From NCBI GenBank assembly GCA_005881995.1, contig VBHV01000639.1, forward strand, positions 1 through 6,484: a stretch of DNA of 6,484 bases, written 5' to 3'. The notes below the pieces were generated by a model, which ran no database searches, was not told the DNA's origin, and worked only from the letters and a program-made list of their open reading frames with translations. Position numbers and translations under genes: made by a program. This DNA is from Chloroflexota bacterium. Its GTDB lineage: Bacteria; Chloroflexota; Ktedonobacteria; Ktedonobacterales; Ktedonobacteraceae. Positions 1 through 6,345 of this stretch are shown one piece after another (positions within the stretch are counted from its first letter, which is position 1; each line of letters begins with the position of its first letter).

Positions 1-340
1 CACGCACACGCGCGTTAATCATACGGTTGACGGCATTCATGCCACCACCGCCAACGCCCGCGACGACAATATCTACATGGTTTGGCGCCTGATCATAATA
101 GTCATAGGGATTGGGGGAAGCGTAGGCATCATCTTCTGTATCGCGCTGATCCCAATCAGATCGCTCTCGCCCGCTGTTCTCATCATTCCGCATCACATGC
201 TCATCCTCCACCTCGTGCCGAAGAACGGCCCACTGATCTTCCTGTTCTGGCTGCGCATTCGAAGAATCGGGTGTCATCCCTTTTCCAGGATTGTGGGGAT
301 AGTTGCGTTTGTTTGCATCTTGATGAAACTGTGGCTGCAT
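1..340 (-). CDS. ftsZ: Cell division protein FtsZ, N-terminal part (runs off left edge)
   Basis: FtsZ is the tubulin-like GTPase that polymerises into the cytoplasmic Z-ring at the division site. Only the first 113 codons are in the window. Residues 89-113 read as the first beta strand and G1 loop of FtsZ: VDIVVAGVGGGGMNAVNRMI, with GVGGGGMNAVN at about 95-105 forming part of the GTP-binding pocket. Residues 1-88 form a hydrophilic, acidic, Asp/Glu/Asn/Gln/Pro-rich stretch with no fold I recognise; in well-known FtsZ proteins this region is only about 10-20 residues. The start at 340 is preferred because AGGGG (346-350) sits 5 bases upstream and a promoter lies just beyond. In-frame ATGs at 370 and 418 lack good SD spacing, and the 418 one overlaps the -10 element. 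No ftsA or ftsQ lies upstream, so ftsZ appears to have its own promoter. The FtsZ identity is firm; the exact start is less so. Confidence 0.9.
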   Translation of the reverse strand, partial: MQPQFHQDANKRNYPHNPGKGMTPDSSNAQPEQEDQWAVLRHEVEDEHVMRNDENSGRERSDWDQRDTEDDAYASPNPYDYYDQAPNHVDIVVAGVGGGGMNAVNRMINARVR

Positions 341-345
341 ATGAT

Positions 346-350
346 CCCCT
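346..350 (-). promoter_or_regulatory. Ribosome binding site deciding the ftsZ start
   Basis: AGGGG on the minus strand, 5 bases before the ATG at 340. The upstream in-frame ATG at 370 has no purine-rich SD at suitable spacing, and the one at 418 has AGGA directly abutting it. This site is the reason for choosing 340. Confidence 0.55.
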
Positions 351-406
351 GTTCTTCTCGCTCTGCTCATACGATACGCGCTTGTTCCGCACTGCTGTTG
401 AGAGCA

Positions 407-415
407 AGTATAGCA
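407..415 (-). promoter_or_regulatory. Extended -10 promoter for ftsZ
   Basis: The minus strand reads TGCTATACT, a TGn extended -10 motif followed by TATACT (5 of 6 match to TATAAT). The sequence 17 bases upstream (TAGGAT) is a poor -35, as is common for extended -10 promoters. Transcription would start near 400, giving a leader of about 60 bases before the ATG at 340. The same nine bases recur at 6346-6354 on the plus strand. Confidence 0.55.
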
Positions 416-422
416 CATTCCT

Positions 423-433
423 GGATGGCATCC
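423..433. promoter_or_regulatory. Short palindrome GGATGGCATCC in the ftsZ promoter
   Basis: An 11-bp palindrome (GGATG, one central base, CATCC) lies where the -35 element and spacer of the ftsZ promoter would be. Such a position fits an operator, but 5-bp arms arise easily by chance and no known regulator is recognised. Confidence 0.25.
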
Positions 434-622
434 TACCCGCATTGTAACAATAATGTCAAGTATATACCAACTCGATTGCCTGAAAGCAGATAGAACGCAG
501 TTCACCTGGCTGATGGCAGTCGGAATAAAGAGAATTGTGCGTGTAACAGCGCGTACAAATTACATAGTACTTATGATTATAGCGGGTAGAGACCAGGTTG
601 TGTATTGTGGGAGGCGAATTTG
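434..622. other. Spacer with no recognisable gene
   Basis: Between the ftsZ promoter and the repeat cluster I see no ORF with a ribosome binding site, no tRNA-like cloverleaf and no clear terminator. Minus-strand reading frames extending into 456-854 are translations of the GC-rich repeats (recurring ARPSRSPWP-like peptides) and have no start signal. Together with the repeats, this makes 341-867 a gene-free spacer of about 530 bp. Confidence 0.6.
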
Positions 623-787
623 ACGGCCAGGGCGACCGGGATGGACGCGCCGCATGAACAACGGCCAGGGCGATATTGACCCCGCCAGCCACGTCATAGA
701 TATAGGCGACTGGGATGGACGCGCCGCACGAACAACGGCCAGGGCGACCGGGATGGATGCACCGCACGAACAACGGCCAGGGCGACC
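623..787. repeat. Tandem 38-bp repeat cluster, about 3.4 copies, one interrupted
   Basis: The unit starts ACGGCCAGGGCGACC and ends CCGCAYGAACA. Copy 1 is 623-660. Copy 2 is 661-734 and is split after its 13th base by an unrelated 36-bp stretch (674-709), with its remaining 25 bases at 710-734. Copy 3 is 735-772, with changes to GGATGC and ACCGC. A partial copy 4 starts at 773 and runs into the inverted repeat. Copies differ at only a few positions. The units are contiguous, with no spacers, so this is a minisatellite and not a CRISPR array. Confidence 0.8.
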
Positions 788-847
788 GCGAGGGTCGCCC
801 GTACAATACCTGTAGACGTACGGGCGACCCTCGCGGTCGCCCTGGCC
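775..847. repeat. Perfect 30-bp inverted repeat with 13-base loop
   Basis: The left arm 775-804 is exactly complementary to the right arm 818-847, with a loop at 805-817 (AATACCTGTAGAC). Each arm contains a smaller palindrome, GGGCGACC / GGTCGCCC, so it can fold as one long hairpin or as two nested ones. On the minus strand it lies 20 bases beyond the stop of the small basic protein, where it could halt transcription or protect RNA 3' ends. No T-tract follows on either strand, so it is not a canonical intrinsic terminator. It resembles REP/MITE-like dispersed palindromes; a related single arm occurs at 6244-6264. Confidence 0.85.
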
Positions 848-1093: not shown

Positions 1094-1681
1094 TCAAGGT
1101 TCAGGTGGAGTATCAGTCCATTTGTCTACGCCGGTCAGAGGCTTATAGGACTCGAAGCGATCTAGCAGGGCGGACGGCGTAGATTCACGGAGAATGATGT
1201 CGATATGACGAGGTGGAATGAAACATTCCGTCGAGGCATGCGTGATGAGCGCCAGCAAGGGTGTAAAATAGCCTGCGACATCAAGCAGCCCGACCGGCTT
1301 GCTGTGCAGCCCAAGTTGCGCCCACGTGGTGATCTCGAAGAGTTCGTCGAACGTTCCAAAGCCGCCGGGCAGCGCAATAAATCCATCTGCAAGGTCGGCC
1401 ATTAGTGCTTTACGCTCGTGCATGCTGCCTACCTCGTGCAACTGGGTGAGGCCACTATGCGGAAACTCCCGCTTGAACAAGCCGCGCGGTATGACGCCGA
1501 TGACTTCCCCTCCACGAGCCAGAACGCTATCGGCGATCACCCCCATCAGTCCCACGCTGGCCCCTCCGTAGACGAGTCCAAGCCCGCGGGCCACAAGCTC
1601 CTGGCCCAGCGCCTGTGCTGCCTGCCGGTATTCGGGACGATTGCCGTAGTTTGAGCCTGCGAAGACGCAGATGTGTTGCAT
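1094..1681 (-). CDS. LOG-family protein (nucleoside 5'-monophosphate phosphoribohydrolase)
   Basis: A 195-residue cytosolic Rossmann-fold enzyme of the LOG (Lonely Guy / TIGR00730) family. Characterised members hydrolyse the N-glycosidic bond of cytokinin riboside 5'-monophosphates or related nucleotides, releasing the base and ribose 5-phosphate. Visible signatures: an N-terminal strand and loop ICVFAGSNYGNRPEY (4-18), GGASVGLMG (39-47), VIPRGL (63-68), the MHERKALM segment with R90 and K91 (87-94), and the hallmark PGGFGTFDELFE (105-116), which binds phosphoribose and includes the catalytic glutamate. The length is normal and the protein looks intact. The ATG at 1681 has AGGAGG (1691-1696) 9 bases upstream. 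It is divergent from the large signalling gene and upstream of the small basic protein on the same strand. Family membership is firm. Whether the substrate is a cytokinin or a common nucleotide cannot be told from sequence, and physiological roles in free-living bacteria are poorly known. Confidence 0.92.
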   Translation of the reverse strand: MQHICVFAGSNYGNRPEYRQAAQALGQELVARGLGLVYGGASVGLMGVIADSVLARGGEVIGVIPRGLFKREFPHSGLTQLHEVGSMHERKALMADLADGFIALPGGFGTFDELFEITTWAQLGLHSKPVGLLDVAGYFTPLLALITHASTECFIPPRHIDIILRESTPSALLDRFESYKPLTGVDKWTDTPPEP

Positions 1682-1703
1682 GTGAGTGTTCCTCCTGATG
1701 ATA

Positions 1704-1732
1704 TATATAACATATGTGTATAGCGATAATAA
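1704..1732 (-). promoter_or_regulatory. Possible -35/-10 promoter of the LOG gene
   Basis: On the minus strand TTATTA (1727-1732) and TATATA (1704-1709) are separated by 17 bases. Matches to consensus are 3/6 and 4/6. Transcription would start near 1697, just ahead of the AGGAGG at 1691-1696. The surrounding 1698-1730 stretch is very AT-rich and contains the palindrome ACATATGT (1710-1717), as expected of a promoter zone between divergent genes. I found no convincing promoter for the plus-strand gene. Confidence 0.33.
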
Positions 1733-1880
1733 TGTTGTAGACCGAGTAAGAAATAAGGAAAAGGAAGAGGCACTAGTTTGCAGTCGTGGTTATACAGGTG
1801 ATAGAGTAATGAGAAGAGTACGAGGCTCATCCCGATCTTCATCGAGGCGTTTCTTTCTCGGCAACAGGCATGCAACAAGA

Positions 1881-1887
1881 GGAGGTG
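1881..1887 (+). promoter_or_regulatory. Ribosome binding site deciding the GTG start of the large fusion gene
   Basis: GGAGGTG, within AAGAGGAGGTG, lies 5 bases before the GTG at 1893. The open frame extends back to 1686 with an alternative ATG at 1809, but neither has an SD of this quality. The 69 extra residues are Arg/Ser-rich and unlike any kinase N-terminus, whereas the kinase fold begins about ten residues after the GTG. Confidence 0.75.
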
Positions 1888-1892
1888 CAGCC

Positions 1893-4800
1893 GTGACTGA
1901 CCGTGTAGGTCAGCAGATTGGCAACTATCGCCTGCTCCGACTGCTTGGTCAGGGCATCATTGCGGAAGTCTACCTGGGGGAACACCTGCACCTTGGCATG
2001 CAGGCGGCCATTAAAGTGCTGCGTGTCCACTTGACGAACGAGGATAGTGAGCAACTCCACGCTGAAGCACGCTTGATTGCGCGCCTTGTGCACCCTCATA
2101 TCGTGCGCCTCTTCGATTTTGACGTCAAAGATGGCCGCCCCTTTCTGATCATGGAGTATGCCCCCAATGGCACCTTGCGCCAGCGCCACCCAAAAGGCAC
2201 CCTGGTACCACTCGACATCGTCGTCTCCTACGTGAAACAACTGGCCGAGGCTTTACATTATGTCCATGAGCTAGGGCGGGTGCATTGCGATATCAAGCCT
2301 GAGAACATCGTGATTGGGCATAACCATGAACTCTTGCTCTCTGACTTTGGCCTGGCTTTCACAGGCCAAAGCTCATATTCCCGGCAGACCCAGGGGATGG
2401 TCAGGACCTCGGCCTATATGGCTCCTGAGCAGATCCAGGGGCATCCGGTCCCAGCCAGCGATCAGTATTCTCTGGCTGTGGTGGTCTATGAATGGCTCAG
2501 TGGAGATTGGCCTTTTTCTGGGTGGACGTTTGCGGAGATGGAGAGCCAGCATCTCTTAGTTGCTTCCCCGTCTCTGCGTGAAAGGGTGCCAACGATACCA
2601 CCAGCAGTTGAACAGGTTGTAATCAGAGCGCTCGCCAAAGATCCGCAGCAGCGCTTTGCGAGCGTAAAGGATTTTGCTCTGGCTCTGGAAGAAGCTGCTA
2701 AAGCAGAATCTTCTCTATATCTATCTGAAGCCGGGCAAAGGAGCGTTTCCATTGGTGATCTACCGAGGGGTACGGTCACACTTCTCTTCACTGACATCGA
2801 GGGGTCTACACATCTGCTCCAGCAGTTGGGTGACCACTACACTGACATGCTCTCAGAGTGCCGACAGCTACTGCGTGCTGTATTCCAGGAATGGAGTGGT
2901 CGTGAGGTGGACACGCAGGGAGATGCCTTCTTCGTCGCTTTTGCACGCGCCACAGATGCCGTGTTAGCGGCGGTTGATGCACAACGGGCCATTTCCAATC
3001 ATCCCTGGCCGGAAAGTGTGGCAGTGCGCGTGCGCATGGGCCTGCATACGGGAGAACCATCACTCACATCCGAAGGCTACGTCGGCCTGGATGTGCATCG
3101 CGCCGCACGCATCATGAGCGCCGGGCACGGTGGGCAGGTCCTGCTCTCCCAGACGACCTGTATGCTGGTGGAGCAGGACCTGCCGGATGACGTGGGTCTG
3201 CGGGAGCTAGGGGAATATCGCCTCAAGGACCTGGGTCGCCCCAGGCGTCTTTTCCAGCTTGTGATCTCAGATCTCCCTGCCAACTTCCCGGCCTTGAGAA
3301 CCCTCGATAACTTCCCTAACAACTTACCCGTCCAGCCTACCCCGTTTCTTGGGCGTGAGAAGGAATTGGCGGTCGTCGGGGATCTGCTGCACCGCGAGGA
3401 TATACGCCTGGTCACCCTGACAGGTTCCGGTGGCTCCGGTAAGACTCGCCTTGGGTTGCAGGTGGCGGCGGAACTGAGTGATCTGTTCGCTGATGGCGTG
3501 TTTTTCGTGAACCTGGCTCCCATCAGCGATCCTGCCTATGTGGTGCCTACCATCGTCGAGACGCTCGGCCTCTGGGAAGGGGTTGGCCAATCGCTCCTGG
3601 AGCGTCTAAAGGAAGAACTGCGACAGAAGCACATGCTGCTGCTGCTGGACAACTTCGAGCAGGTGGTGAGCGCGGCAGAGCAGGTAGCAACCTTGCTTGT
3701 GGCTTGCCCACAGCTCAAGGTACTGGTGACGAGCAGGGAGGTGCTGCACGTGCGAGCCGAGCACGAGTTCGTCGTGCCACCACTGGCGTTGCCCGATCCC
3801 AAACAACTGCCGGATCTCACAGTACTCTCGCAATATGCATCGGTTGCCCTCTTCATCCTGAGAGCTCAGGCAGTAAAGCCCGATTTTCAGATGACGAGCG
3901 CCAACGCTCGCGCAATCGTTGAGATCTGCGCTCGCTTGGATGGACTACCACTGGCCATTGAGTTGGCTGCTGCCCGCATGAAATTGCTCACTCCGCAGGC
4001 TCTGCTGGCGCGACTGGGTCAGCGTTTACAGGTCTTGACAGGTATGTCGCGGGATGTACCGGCGCGCCAGCAGACTCTGCGCAACACCATCGAGTGGAGC
4101 TACAATCTGTTAAATGAGCAGGAACAACGGCTCTTCCGGCAGCTTTCAGTCTTCGTCGGAGGCTGCACATTAGAGGCGGTAGAGGCTGTACATTCTGCCC
4201 TTGGAGACGGCGACAGTGCAGAACAGATTTTGAATAGAGTAGCCTCGCTTATCGACAAGAGCTTGCTGCAACAATCCGAACAGACGGTGGAGGGGCAGGA
4301 ATCACGGCTAATGCTGCTAGAGACGATCCGTGAGTATGGGCTAGAGTGCCTTACGGCGAATGGGGAGGTGGAGATAGCCAGGCGTGTTCACGCCAACTAC
4401 TATTTAGCTCTGGCTGAAGAGATAGAGCCGGAACTGGTTGGTGCAGAGGATAAGAAGTGGCTGGATCAGCTGGAACGGGAAAACGATAACTTACGAGCCG
4501 CGCTGAATTGGTTGATAGACTGTCAAGACGTGGAAGCGTTTTTGCGATTGGGTGGAGCTTTGGAGACGTTCTGGACAGCTCGTGGTTATGAAAATGAGGG
4601 AAGACAATATCTGGAGCGGGGACTCACAACACCTGCGCCTATTTCTAGCGCTGTGCGAGCCAAGGCGCTCAATGCAGCTGGGGCGTTGGCTCTCAGTCAG
4701 TACGATATCGACAAGGCAGAAGAGCTATGCAGAGAGGGCCTGAAACTCTATCGATCACTTGGAGATAAAGGTAGAATTGCACGTTCAACCTATCTATTAG

Positions 4801-6008
4801 GAAGTGTTGCCGGGATGAGAGGCAACTTCACATCTGCTCGCTCACTGTTAGAGGAGGCTACAGTACTCTTCAGGGAGGAGGGCATTGAATGGGGTACCGG
4901 TGATATTTTCTTCGCAATGGGTGTAATTGCTTTCGATGAGGGAAAGTACGCACAGGCAAGTTCACTATTTGAGGAGAGCCTTTCGGTCTTCAGAAAGGTT
5001 GGTAATAAAGGGAGTATTGTCTATGCGCTTTTCCAACTGGCGCGTGTGACCTTTACTCAGGGTAATTTTACAAAGTCGCAGGCTCTAGCCGCGGAATGCC
5101 GGGCATTCTCCCAAGAAATCAGCTTCAAGTTAGGGATAGGCTTAGCTCTCTTCCAACTGGCGCGTGTGACCTTTGCCCAAGGCGATTCTACCAGAGCACG
5201 CTCCTTGGCGGAAGAATGTCTCACGCTTTGTCGTAATGAGCCGAAGGACAAAGCTGGTATCGCCTACGCTCTCGGCTTATTGGGACAGGTTGAACTTTAT
5301 CAAGGAAATATTGTAATGGCACATTCTCTCATAGAGGAGAGTTTGGGATTTTTTAAGGATGAGGTGGAGGACAGGCGAGGCTTAGTCGAAGCCCTCTTCC
5401 ACCTGGGACGTGTGGCTAGCTTACAGAAAGACTCTACAAGGGCGCGTGCTCTCTATGAGGAGAGCTATGTAATAGCTAAAGAGATGGGCAACAAGCTGTT
5501 GATTGCCTCCTGTTTAGAAGGCTTAGCAAGTCTTGCTGCGACGCAGGGAGAAACGACCTGGGGTACATATCTCTGGGGAGCTGCAGAATCCCTACGCGAA
5601 GCAATTGAGGCACCTATGCTGCCCATCGAGCGAGACGACTACATGCGCTCAGTAGCAGCCGCACGGGCCCAACTGGGTGAGAAACTCTTTGCGGCTGCGT
5701 GGGCTGAAGGACGGTCGATGACGCCTGATCAGGCCTTCGCCGCACGAGAAACTGCGATATCAACCACAATAGTTCCCGATGGACCTCATCCTGCGAAGGT
5801 TGCAATTTCCTATCCGGCTGGACTCACGGCACGTGAGGTGGCGGTGCTGTGCCTAGTGGCCCAGGGGATGACGAATGAGCAAGTGGCCGACCAGTTGGTC
5901 ATTCGTCCGCGGACCGTTAATACTCATCTGACCTCGATCTATGGGAAAATTGGGGTCTCCACGCGCAGTGCGGCCACCCGCTATGCCATGGAGCACCACT
6001 TGCTCTAA
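1893..6008 (+). CDS. Ser/Thr kinase - class III cyclase - STAND ATPase - TPR - LuxR HTH fusion regulator
   Basis: A 1371-residue cytosolic one-polypeptide regulator starting at GTG 1893. Domains in order. Ser/Thr kinase, about 10-268: GQG loop (19-21), AIK K41, helix-C E58, HCDIKPEN with D133/K135/N138, DFG 151-153, APE 177-179, R254. Class III nucleotide cyclase, about 291-425: metal aspartates D301 (FTDIEGST) and D344 (QGDAFF), RMGLHTGE, HRAAR with R406. NB-ARC-like STAND ATPase, about 484-800: Walker A GSGGSGKT (511-518), Walker B LLLLD (582-586), TSRE (613-616), GLPLAIELAAAR (684-695). Then a linker with LLETIREYG and ENDNLRAALNW. Seven to eight TPRs of about 40 residues, 922-1235. LuxR/GerE HTH, 1311-1371, with RTVNTHLTSIYGKIGV. 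There is no membrane segment. By family precedent (MalT/PknK-like and mycobacterial cyclase-ATPase-HTH proteins), ligand or partner sensing by TPR/STAND should control DNA binding. The kinase is non-RD (HCD), and the cyclase lacks the usual substrate-selecting Lys/Asp and the Asn of NxAAR. The target promoter is unknown. Confidence 0.93.
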   Translation: MTDRVGQQIGNYRLLRLLGQGIIAEVYLGEHLHLGMQAAIKVLRVHLTNEDSEQLHAEARLIARLVHPHIVRLFDFDVKDGRPFLIMEYAPNGTLRQRHPKGTLVPLDIVVSYVKQLAEALHYVHELGRVHCDIKPENIVIGHNHELLLSDFGLAFTGQSSYSRQTQGMVRTSAYMAPEQIQGHPVPASDQYSLAVVVYEWLSGDWPFSGWTFAEMESQHLLVASPSLRERVPTIPPAVEQVVIRALAKDPQQRFASVKDFALALEEAAKAESSLYLSEAGQRSVSIGDLPRGTVTLLFTDIEGSTHLLQQLGDHYTDMLSECRQLLRAVFQEWSGREVDTQGDAFFVAFARATDAVLAAVDAQRAISNHPWPESVAVRVRMGLHTGEPSLTSEGYVGLDVHRAARIMSAGHGGQVLLSQTTCMLVEQDLPDDVGLRELGEYRLKDLGRPRRLFQLVISDLPANFPALRTLDNFPNNLPVQPTPFLGREKELAVVGDLLHREDIRLVTLTGSGGSGKTRLGLQVAAELSDLFADGVFFVNLAPISDPAYVVPTIVETLGLWEGVGQSLLERLKEELRQKHMLLLLDNFEQVVSAAEQVATLLVACPQLKVLVTSREVLHVRAEHEFVVPPLALPDPKQLPDLTVLSQYASVALFILRAQAVKPDFQMTSANARAIVEICARLDGLPLAIELAAARMKLLTPQALLARLGQRLQVLTGMSRDVPARQQTLRNTIEWSYNLLNEQEQRLFRQLSVFVGGCTLEAVEAVHSALGDGDSAEQILNRVASLIDKSLLQQSEQTVEGQESRLMLLETIREYGLECLTANGEVEIARRVHANYYLALAEEIEPELVGAEDKKWLDQLERENDNLRAALNWLIDCQDVEAFLRLGGALETFWTARGYENEGRQYLERGLTTPAPISSAVRAKALNAAGALALSQYDIDKAEELCREGLKLYRSLGDKGRIARSTYLLGSVAGMRGNFTSARSLLEEATVLFREEGIEWGTGDIFFAMGVIAFDEGKYAQASSLFEESLSVFRKVGNKGSIVYALFQLARVTFTQGNFTKSQALAAECRAFSQEISFKLGIGLALFQLARVTFAQGDSTRARSLAEECLTLCRNEPKDKAGIAYALGLLGQVELYQGNIVMAHSLIEESLGFFKDEVEDRRGLVEALFHLGRVASLQKDSTRARALYEESYVIAKEMGNKLLIASCLEGLASLAATQGETTWGTYLWGAAESLREAIEAPMLPIERDDYMRSVAAARAQLGEKLFAAAWAEGRSMTPDQAFAARETAISTTIVPDGPHPAKVAISYPAGLTAREVAVLCLVAQGMTNEQVADQLVIRPRTVNTHLTSIYGKIGVSTRSAATRYAMEHHLL
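5031..5174 (+). repeat. Near-identical neighbouring TPR units at DNA level
   Basis: Within the TPR coding region, 5031-5054 and 5151-5174 are identical over 24 bases (encoding FQLARVTF) and lie exactly 120 bp, that is 40 codons, apart. Sequence around the two blocks is similar but diverged. This indicates a recent unit duplication or local gene conversion between adjacent repeats. Confidence 0.8.
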
Positions 6009-6127
6009 ATTACACGCCGTTCAGTCGTAGAACCCTACATCACTATCCATCATAATGTCAGATGCCGATGTGTTGCTGCCGGGGTCGCCCAATACGCATC
6101 AACCTAACAACAAGCCCATCAACGTCT

Positions 6128-6203
6128 GTAGGGCGAGCCACACCCCGCCCCCGGGCGACCATAAAGGCCCTCCCAACCCCTCATCGTCCGCCCTCGCCCC
6201 TAC
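6128..6203. repeat. Imperfect inverted repeat, MITE/REP-like remnant
   Basis: The left arm GTAGGGCGAG (6128-6137) pairs with the right arm CTCGCCCCTAC (6193-6203), with one bulged base. The roughly 55-bp middle is C-rich and contains GGGCGACC (6153-6160). The sequence family matches the hairpins at 775-847, suggesting a decayed member of the same dispersed repeat. Confidence 0.5.
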
Positions 6204-6243
6204 GGATTGTCCAGCTCTGTGCCTGGCTTTCCGGATTAGGTTT

Positions 6244-6264
6244 GGGCGACCGCGAGGGTTGCCC
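6244..6264. repeat. Second copy of the GGGCGACC-GCGA-GGGTCGCCC palindrome
   Basis: These 21 bases match 780-800 at 20 of 21 positions. The single change (C to T at the 17th base) weakens the hairpin. It shows that the palindrome is dispersed on both sides of the gene block, not a one-off. Confidence 0.75.
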
Positions 6265-6345
6265 TGGAAGTCAAATCGTATTCCTGGCGATCATTCACAG
6301 ACCCTGGTGCTTCTGCACATGCATCTTTCTATATTATCCCCACTC

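What the first reader, a model, noticed from the sequence alone, without database searches (positions are those of the whole stretch)
1893..6008. Five-module signalling fusion: kinase, cyclase, STAND ATPase, TPR and DNA-binding domain in one protein
The motifs of all five modules are visible in one uninterrupted frame. Known relatives combine subsets: PknK joins kinase, ATPase and TPR, while mycobacterial Rv0386-like proteins join cyclase, ATPase and HTH. Here both enzymatic modules precede the STAND-TPR-HTH core. That would place phosphorylation, cyclic-nucleotide signalling and transcription control in one chain of 1371 residues. I cannot say whether this exact order has been described.
Basis: partly seen in the sequence, partly recalled or inferred. 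Interest (0 to 1): 0.75.

Follow-up and report, generated by a model that had tools for sequence, protein, structure and literature searches.

The report
Five-module kinase-cyclase STAND regulator family
One long bacterial protein joins a protein kinase, a nucleotide cyclase, an ATP-driven switch, a repeat sensor and a DNA-binding tail; the join is real, and it turns out to be a common build in a large, little-studied protein family of soil Ktedonobacteria in which the kinase has lost catalytic residues again and again.

Summary
One uninterrupted frame (GTG 1893 to stop 6008, 1371 aa, good ribosome site) encodes a Hanks-type kinase, class III cyclase, NB-ARC/STAND ATPase, TPRs and a LuxR-type (GerE) HTH, in that order. 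It is no assembly join: a 99% identical protein lies on another contig, and kinase, cyclase and ATPase are co-linear in 120, 121 and 121 of 121 aligned proteins. Nor is it unique: 127 of the 170 proteins examined hold all five modules; the five with an organism name are Ktedonobacteraceae, Ktedonobacter or Chloroflexota. Ten literature searches showed no description of the build. Known proteins (PknK, Rv0386, Myxococcus PKN2) hold subsets. New here: (1) the DFG aspartate is Glu in 68 of 170, with at least 11 changes on the tree, while the ATP-binding lysine stays and EFG kinases do not evolve faster; the window's own kinase is intact but non-RD. (2) The cyclase keeps both metal aspartates but has Asp/Gly where adenylyl cyclases have Lys/Asp, so cAMP cannot be assumed. 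(3) TPRs vary most; cyclase, ATPase and HTH least. (4) Actinomycetota carry a kinase-cyclase-STAND fusion without HTH whose kinase seems independently acquired.

The parts
1880..1886 (+). Shine-Dalgarno-like AGGAGGT, six bases before the start codon
   Evidence: read directly from the sequence
1893..6008 (+). whole five-module gene, 1371 aa, GTG start
   Evidence: full-length homologues
1926..2660 (+). Hanks-type Ser/Thr kinase (residues 12-256); K41, E58, HCD 131-133, N138, DFG 151-153 present; non-RD
2769..3227 (+). class III nucleotidyl cyclase (residues 293-445); metal D301 and D344, R406; D340/G395 in place of Lys/Asp; H402
3369..4103 (+). NB-ARC/STAND ATPase (residues 493-737); Walker A 511-518, Walker B 582-586, TSR 613-615, GLPLA 684-688
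   Evidence: Pfam; motif columns in 121 proteins
4743..5642 (+). TPR array (about residues 951-1250), the most variable module
   Evidence: Pfam TPR_12, TPR_MalT; median identity to the query 40%
5823..5987 (+). LuxR/GerE-type DNA-binding HTH (residues 1311-1365)
   Evidence: Pfam; median identity 75%

Best explanation
This is a one-protein signalling hub of the STAND type. Shown: five modules in one chain, with intact ATPase motifs, intact kinase catalytic residues, conserved cyclase metal residues and a conserved LuxR-type HTH, and this build kept across a large family. Inferred: the variable TPR array takes up the signal (a ligand or partner protein); the NB-ARC ATPase then binds ATP and oligomerises, as STAND proteins of the MalT kind do (recalled); this brings cyclase domains together (class III active sites form between two domains, recalled), brings kinases within reach of each other for trans-phosphorylation, and pairs the HTHs on DNA. 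One switch would thus set off a second messenger, a phosphorylation event and a promoter choice together. In this protein the kinase is predicted active and, lacking the HRD arginine, probably not controlled by activation-loop phosphorylation. The cyclase product is open: the Asp/Gly pair looks more like a guanylyl than an adenylyl cyclase.
Against: No activity, ligand, oligomer or DNA target was tested. Inter-domain confidence is low (pTM 0.57 and 0.41), so the models say nothing on how the modules touch. Relatives with little TPR (18 of 170 under 30% coverage) or HTH (33 of 170) exist (some may be incomplete genes), so not every member needs all outputs. Changed kinase residues in 80 of 166 speak against phosphorylation as the common output. 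The cyclase has His at the position of the transition-state Asn (143 of 170). The STAND part had no sequence match in the PDB at E 0.001, and its fold was not searched alone.
Confidence: 0.5

Rival explanations
1. The kinase module mainly regulates the neighbouring cyclase by binding ATP, as the kinase homology domain of animal receptor guanylyl cyclases does; phosphotransfer is optional and has been lost repeatedly. In the window's protein the kinase may still be active, but the shared role is allosteric.
For: DFG Asp to Glu in 68 of 170; catalytic-loop Asn to Ser in 41 of 170; HRD Asp to Asn in 8 of 170; the ATP-binding lysine is kept in 166 of the 167 with a letter there (the exception, P0121, begins inside the kinase, so that letter is misaligned). 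Supported branches force at least 10 D/E changes among 121 rows and 11 among 169. EFG kinases are not relaxed: kinase-to-(cyclase, NB-ARC) distance ratio 1.19 in 59 EFG rows, 1.29 in the all-intact group of 35, 1.70 in the other 17 intact rows. In titin kinase, EFG together with a VAIK change has been suggested to preclude activity (PMC4718504, passages). Receptor GC-C has an ATP-binding kinase homology domain, a linker and then the cyclase (PMC9276936, passages). The cyclase's Asp/Gly pair is GC-like.
Against: The window protein and 85 others of 166 readable rows keep all six kinase residues. Some proteins classed as pseudokinases are active (PMC4718504). The kinase-cyclase linker here is variable (median identity 45%) and partly of low confidence (residues 274-285), unlike a conserved signalling helix. 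DFG and catalytic-loop Asn changes are not significantly linked on independent pairs (median p 0.22).
Confidence: 0.25
2. It is essentially a MalT/AfsR-like transcription factor; kinase and cyclase heads are nucleotide-binding regulatory or decaying attachments, and DNA binding is the only output that matters.
For: The HTH is among the best conserved modules (median identity 75%), with near-invariant R1314, A1332, T1341 and H1345. Kinase residues change repeatedly. A cyclase metal residue is changed in 15 of 170.
Against: Rows with under 30% HTH coverage exist (33 of 170) while kinase and cyclase are covered over 70% in 169 of 170 each; the second search was made with a kinase-cyclase query, which favours such rows. 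EFG kinases are not evolving faster.
Confidence: 0.15
3. It is a defence or self/non-self STAND protein (biological conflict), with cyclase or kinase as effectors.
For: AP-ATPases with C-terminal TPRs, cNMP cyclases and catalytically disrupted kinases occur as effector modules in conflict systems of multicellular bacteria (PMC7159879, passages). Diverse TPRs fit recognition of varied ligands.
Against: All 25 PADLOC matches shown (of 38) lie on the kinase stretch, most of them to PD-T4-6 models. The two neighbours scanned are FtsZ-like and LOG-like, not defence genes. A LuxR-type HTH suggests gene control.
Confidence: 0.08
4. Assembly or sequencing join of separate genes.
For: None found.
Against: 99% identical copy on another contig and family-wide co-linearity.
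Confidence: 0.01

Closest known systems
PknK (mycobacteria, Rhodococcus)
   Same: N-terminal Hanks kinase followed by a STAND domain (PMC4601284, passages); Rhodococcus plasmid genes, some annotated PknK or protein kinase, align from kinase to C-terminal HTH over 78-87% of this protein at 31-35% identity in the 20 records listed of 1173
   Different: those places are about 3.2 kb long for some 1350 query residues, so roughly 300 residues, fitting the cyclase, are missing (inference); the kinase-end-plus-cyclase piece (residues 201-478) covers 80% in 0 of 180 plasmid records with a match
Rv0386-like CHD+LuxR proteins (Mycobacterium)
   Same: class III cyclase and C-terminal LuxR HTH in one chain; an alternative substrate-binding mechanism is reported for Rv0386 (PMC3466318, passages)
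   Different: no kinase listed; in that survey of 991 actinobacterial LuxR proteins the only 3-domain sub-family is Pkc+TPR+LuxR (PMC3466318, passages)
TIGR03903 TOMM system kinase/cyclase fusion protein
   Same: by its name, kinase and cyclase in one long chain (1267-position model)
   Different: 121.9 bits against a cut-off of 705.75; its tie to a TOMM peptide cluster is recalled, and the two neighbours scanned are not of that kind
PKN2 of Myxococcus xanthus
   Same: kinase followed by a guanylate-cyclase-like domain (PMC1262709, passages)
   Different: listed there as kinase, guanylate cyclase and transmembrane segment only
Animal receptor guanylyl cyclases (GC-C)
   Same: kinase homology domain, linker, cyclase in that order (PMC9276936, passages)
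   Different: membrane receptor without STAND or HTH; its kinase-like domain lacks catalytic residues (PMC1262709, passages)
Actinomycetota kinase-cyclase-STAND-TPR proteins found here (L018, L019)
   Same: same first four modules (NB-ARC of L019 is under its cut-off, 21.6 against 23.5, but 48% identical to the query's over 261 residues)
   Different: no GerE match; kinase only 27-29% identical to this one while cyclase and NB-ARC are 40-50%, which suggests an independent kinase acquisition

Membership tests
Hanks-type Ser/Thr kinase | Pkinase domain above cut-off and PknB-like fold | tested here: met
Hanks-type Ser/Thr kinase | Lys, alphaC Glu, catalytic Asp, Asn and DFG | tested here: met
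   KEDNDG in the window protein
Hanks-type Ser/Thr kinase, RD type | Arg before the catalytic Asp | tested here: not met
   HCD in place of HRD; among 170 proteins Arg in 160, Cys in 7
Class III nucleotidyl cyclase | Guanylate_cyc domain, fold, two metal Asp, Arg | tested here: met
Class III adenylyl cyclase (canonical) | Lys/Asp pair choosing adenine and transition-state Asn | tested here: not met
   D340 and G395 align with Lys and Asp of Ma1120; H402 at the Asn position (residue roles partly recalled; Lys/Asp against Glu/Cys stated in PMC1262709)
Class III guanylyl cyclase | Glu/Cys-type pair choosing guanine | tested here: inconclusive
   Asp/Gly pair; an engineered KDA-to-EGY Ma1120 was crystallised with GTP (5d0g title), but wild-type Ma1120-Cat was too (5d0e title); no activity data
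STAND NTPase (NB-ARC type) | Walker A, Walker B, TSR and GLPL motifs | tested here: met
STAND NTPase (NB-ARC type) | ATP-dependent oligomerisation | not testable with these tools
   needs purified protein
LuxR/GerE-type regulator | C-terminal GerE HTH | tested here: met
   59.1 bits, cut-off 23.5
PknK | kinase joined to the STAND region without a cyclase between | tested here: not met
   cyclase at residues 293-445
TIGR03903 TOMM kinase/cyclase fusion | score above the curated cut-off | tested here: not met
   121.9 against 705.75 bits
Receptor guanylyl cyclase | kinase-like domain regulates the cyclase through ATP binding | not testable with these tools
   needs cyclase assay with kinase-pocket mutants

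The most novel reading that the evidence does not exclude
Bacteria have independently built the animal receptor-guanylyl-cyclase unit (kinase-like domain regulating a GTP-type cyclase through ATP binding) and mounted it on a STAND oligomerisation switch with its own DNA-binding output. The Ktedonobacteria family would be a natural series of active kinases turning into pseudokinases, again and again, while the cyclase next door stays under selection.
Probability: 0.2. Interest if true: 0.78.

Novelty: new variant of a known kind. Interest (0 to 1): 0.48.

Why it matters
If the hub works as proposed, one ATP-driven switch controls phosphorylation, a cyclic nucleotide and transcription in one molecule, in filamentous soil bacteria whose signalling is hardly studied. 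The family also offers a repeated natural experiment on kinase-to-pseudokinase change beside a conserved cyclase: pairs of close relatives with DFG and EFG would let one ask directly what a kinase-like domain does for a cyclase. The unusual Asp/Gly substrate pair makes the cyclase product (cAMP, cGMP or neither) a simple, open and testable question.

Tried and rejected
Assembly join: rejected. Uniqueness of the architecture: rejected. Membership in TIGR03903, PknK proper and canonical adenylyl cyclases: rejected on tested features. Defence system: the PADLOC matches shown (25 of 38) lie on the kinase alone. Own genome: none is held, so copy number per genome, paralogues and operons could not be counted. 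The single genome-contig scan found only a Bifidobacterium HTH match, so no Chloroflexota genome could be centred on; the Actinomycetota sample (phylum inferred from that locus's title) scored at most 3 candidates a genome and its list was cut, so two kinase-containing fusions in it is a lower bound. Sigma-70 promoter scan of 1650-6300: 0 found, 2.4 expected by chance, no use. Phage records: 0 of 53 with a match have a place covering 80% of the protein. Association of cyclase metal loss with EFG kinases: 8 of 8 losses lie in EFG rows among 121 (Fisher p 0.0025, relatedness ignored), but in the wider set of 170 it is 10 of 15 by my count, so I do not build on it. Linked change of DFG and catalytic-loop Asn: not significant on independent pairs (median p 0.22). 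Structure: AlphaFold domain arrangement not used (pTM 0.57, 0.41); the STAND part did not appear among the 50 rows shown of either fold list because the cyclase filled them, which says nothing about its fold.
Full report
What is there. The frame 1893-6008 (+) encodes 1371 residues without interruption, with AGGAGGT six bases before the GTG start. Pfam gives, each above its curated cut-off: Pkinase 12-256, Guanylate_cyc 293-445, NB-ARC 493-737, TPR repeats (TPR_12, TPR_MalT; about 951-1250 by alignment) and GerE 1311-1365.

It is not a join and not unique. The protein search scored 7994 relatives (the cap of candidates was reached) and listed the best 120; P0002 is 99% identical and equally long. 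In the alignment of those 120 plus the query, kinase, cyclase, NB-ARC, TPR and HTH regions are covered over 70% in 120, 121, 121, 120 and 108 of 121. A second search, with the kinase-cyclase part of a distant member, added 49 proteins; of all 170, the query included, 127 hold all five modules. Shorter builds occur: 33 of 170 have under 30% HTH coverage and 18 of 170 under 30% TPR coverage, though some may be incomplete genes; P0151, P0153 and P0155 keep kinase, cyclase, ATPase and GerE without TPRs; P0004 has two kinase domains, the second with TDYG in place of DFG. Five of the listed proteins carry an organism name, and those read Ktedonobacteraceae (three), Ktedonobacter sp. and Chloroflexota. 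These proteins are best hits to two queries, so the proportions are not population estimates.

Shape of selection. Median identity to the window protein is 80% in the cyclase, 76% in NB-ARC, 75% in the HTH, 62% in the kinase and 40% in the TPRs. The distances of kinase, cyclase and NB-ARC rise together (Spearman 0.56-0.71; 0 of 200 permutations as high), as for modules inherited together. This is what one expects if TPRs are the changing sensor on a shared output machine.

Spread. In 198 genomes of the phylum of a Bifidobacterium locus (Actinomycetota), 197 have some match; the best ones mostly begin at residue about 260-290, that is cyclase-STAND without the kinase. Among the listed matches two run from the kinase into the STAND part (G011, G041); their genes L019 and L018 hold kinase, cyclase, ATPase region and TPR, without a GerE match (in L019 NB-ARC is below its cut-off, 21.6 against 23.5, but the region is 48% identical to the query's). 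Their kinases are 48% identical to each other, but only 27-29% to the window's, while cyclase (43-50%) and NB-ARC (40-48%) are closer; within the Ktedonobacteria-type family distant members still share 57-61% in the kinase, and the window's kinase shows 36% identity to PknF in a structural alignment (a different measure). The simplest reading is that a cyclase-STAND core gained a kinase at least twice. The kinase evolves somewhat faster than the core, so this is likely, not proven. Rhodococcus plasmids carry a PknK-like build.

Known or new. A survey of 991 actinobacterial LuxR proteins lists CHD+LuxR in Mycobacterium only and Pkc+TPR+LuxR in Rhodococcus as the only 3-domain group (PMC3466318, passages). 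NCBIfam's kinase/cyclase fusion model TIGR03903 scores far under its cut-off. None of the ten literature searches showed a description of this five-module build in the titles and abstract openings listed; I read passages of seven papers, not whole texts, and subscription journals are mostly not held. I file it as a new variant of a known kind: a STAND-TPR-LuxR regulator with two enzymatic heads.

Mechanism. I think it most likely that the TPRs bind a signal, ATP-bound NB-ARC oligomerises, and this switches on cyclase pairs, kinase pairs and HTH pairs together. Modules and motifs are shown; all the coupling is inferred from STAND and class III cyclase biology (recalled). The main rival, which the pseudokinase data favour for the family as a whole, is that the kinase module is chiefly an ATP-sensing regulator of the cyclase, as in animal receptor guanylyl cyclases (PMC9276936, passages). 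Both could hold, in different members.

Noticed in passing
window 623-847 and 6244-6264: Intergenic 51-base direct repeats, a perfect 30-base inverted repeat (775-804 / 818-847, 13-base loop) and a 95% copy of its 21-base half after the fusion gene: looks like a small dispersed palindromic repeat. The exact 21-mer occurs in 4 stretches of the viral collection.
   Followed up: partly
window 775-847 (-): Rfam match EBv-sisRNA-2 (44 bits, cut-off 41.8) falls on that long hairpin and is most likely a chance fit to a hairpin.
   Followed up: no
window 1094-1681 (-): TIGR00730/LOG-type Rossmann protein (191.9 bits, cut-off 96.35), divergent from the fusion gene with about 210 bases between.
   Followed up: no
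window 2-505 (-): Start of an FtsZ-like gene with a long N-terminal extension, cut by the window edge (22.2 bits over 29 residues, well under the whole-protein cut-off of 295.2).
   Followed up: no
protein P0004: A 1644-aa relative with two tandem kinase domains, the first canonical, the second with TDYG and ASE in place of DFG and APE.
   Followed up: partly
L020, 2176-5925 (-): Actinomycetota protein whose cyclase-STAND part follows a long N-terminal region that by eye resembles an AfsR/SARP-type DNA-binding and activation region; not scanned.
   Followed up: no
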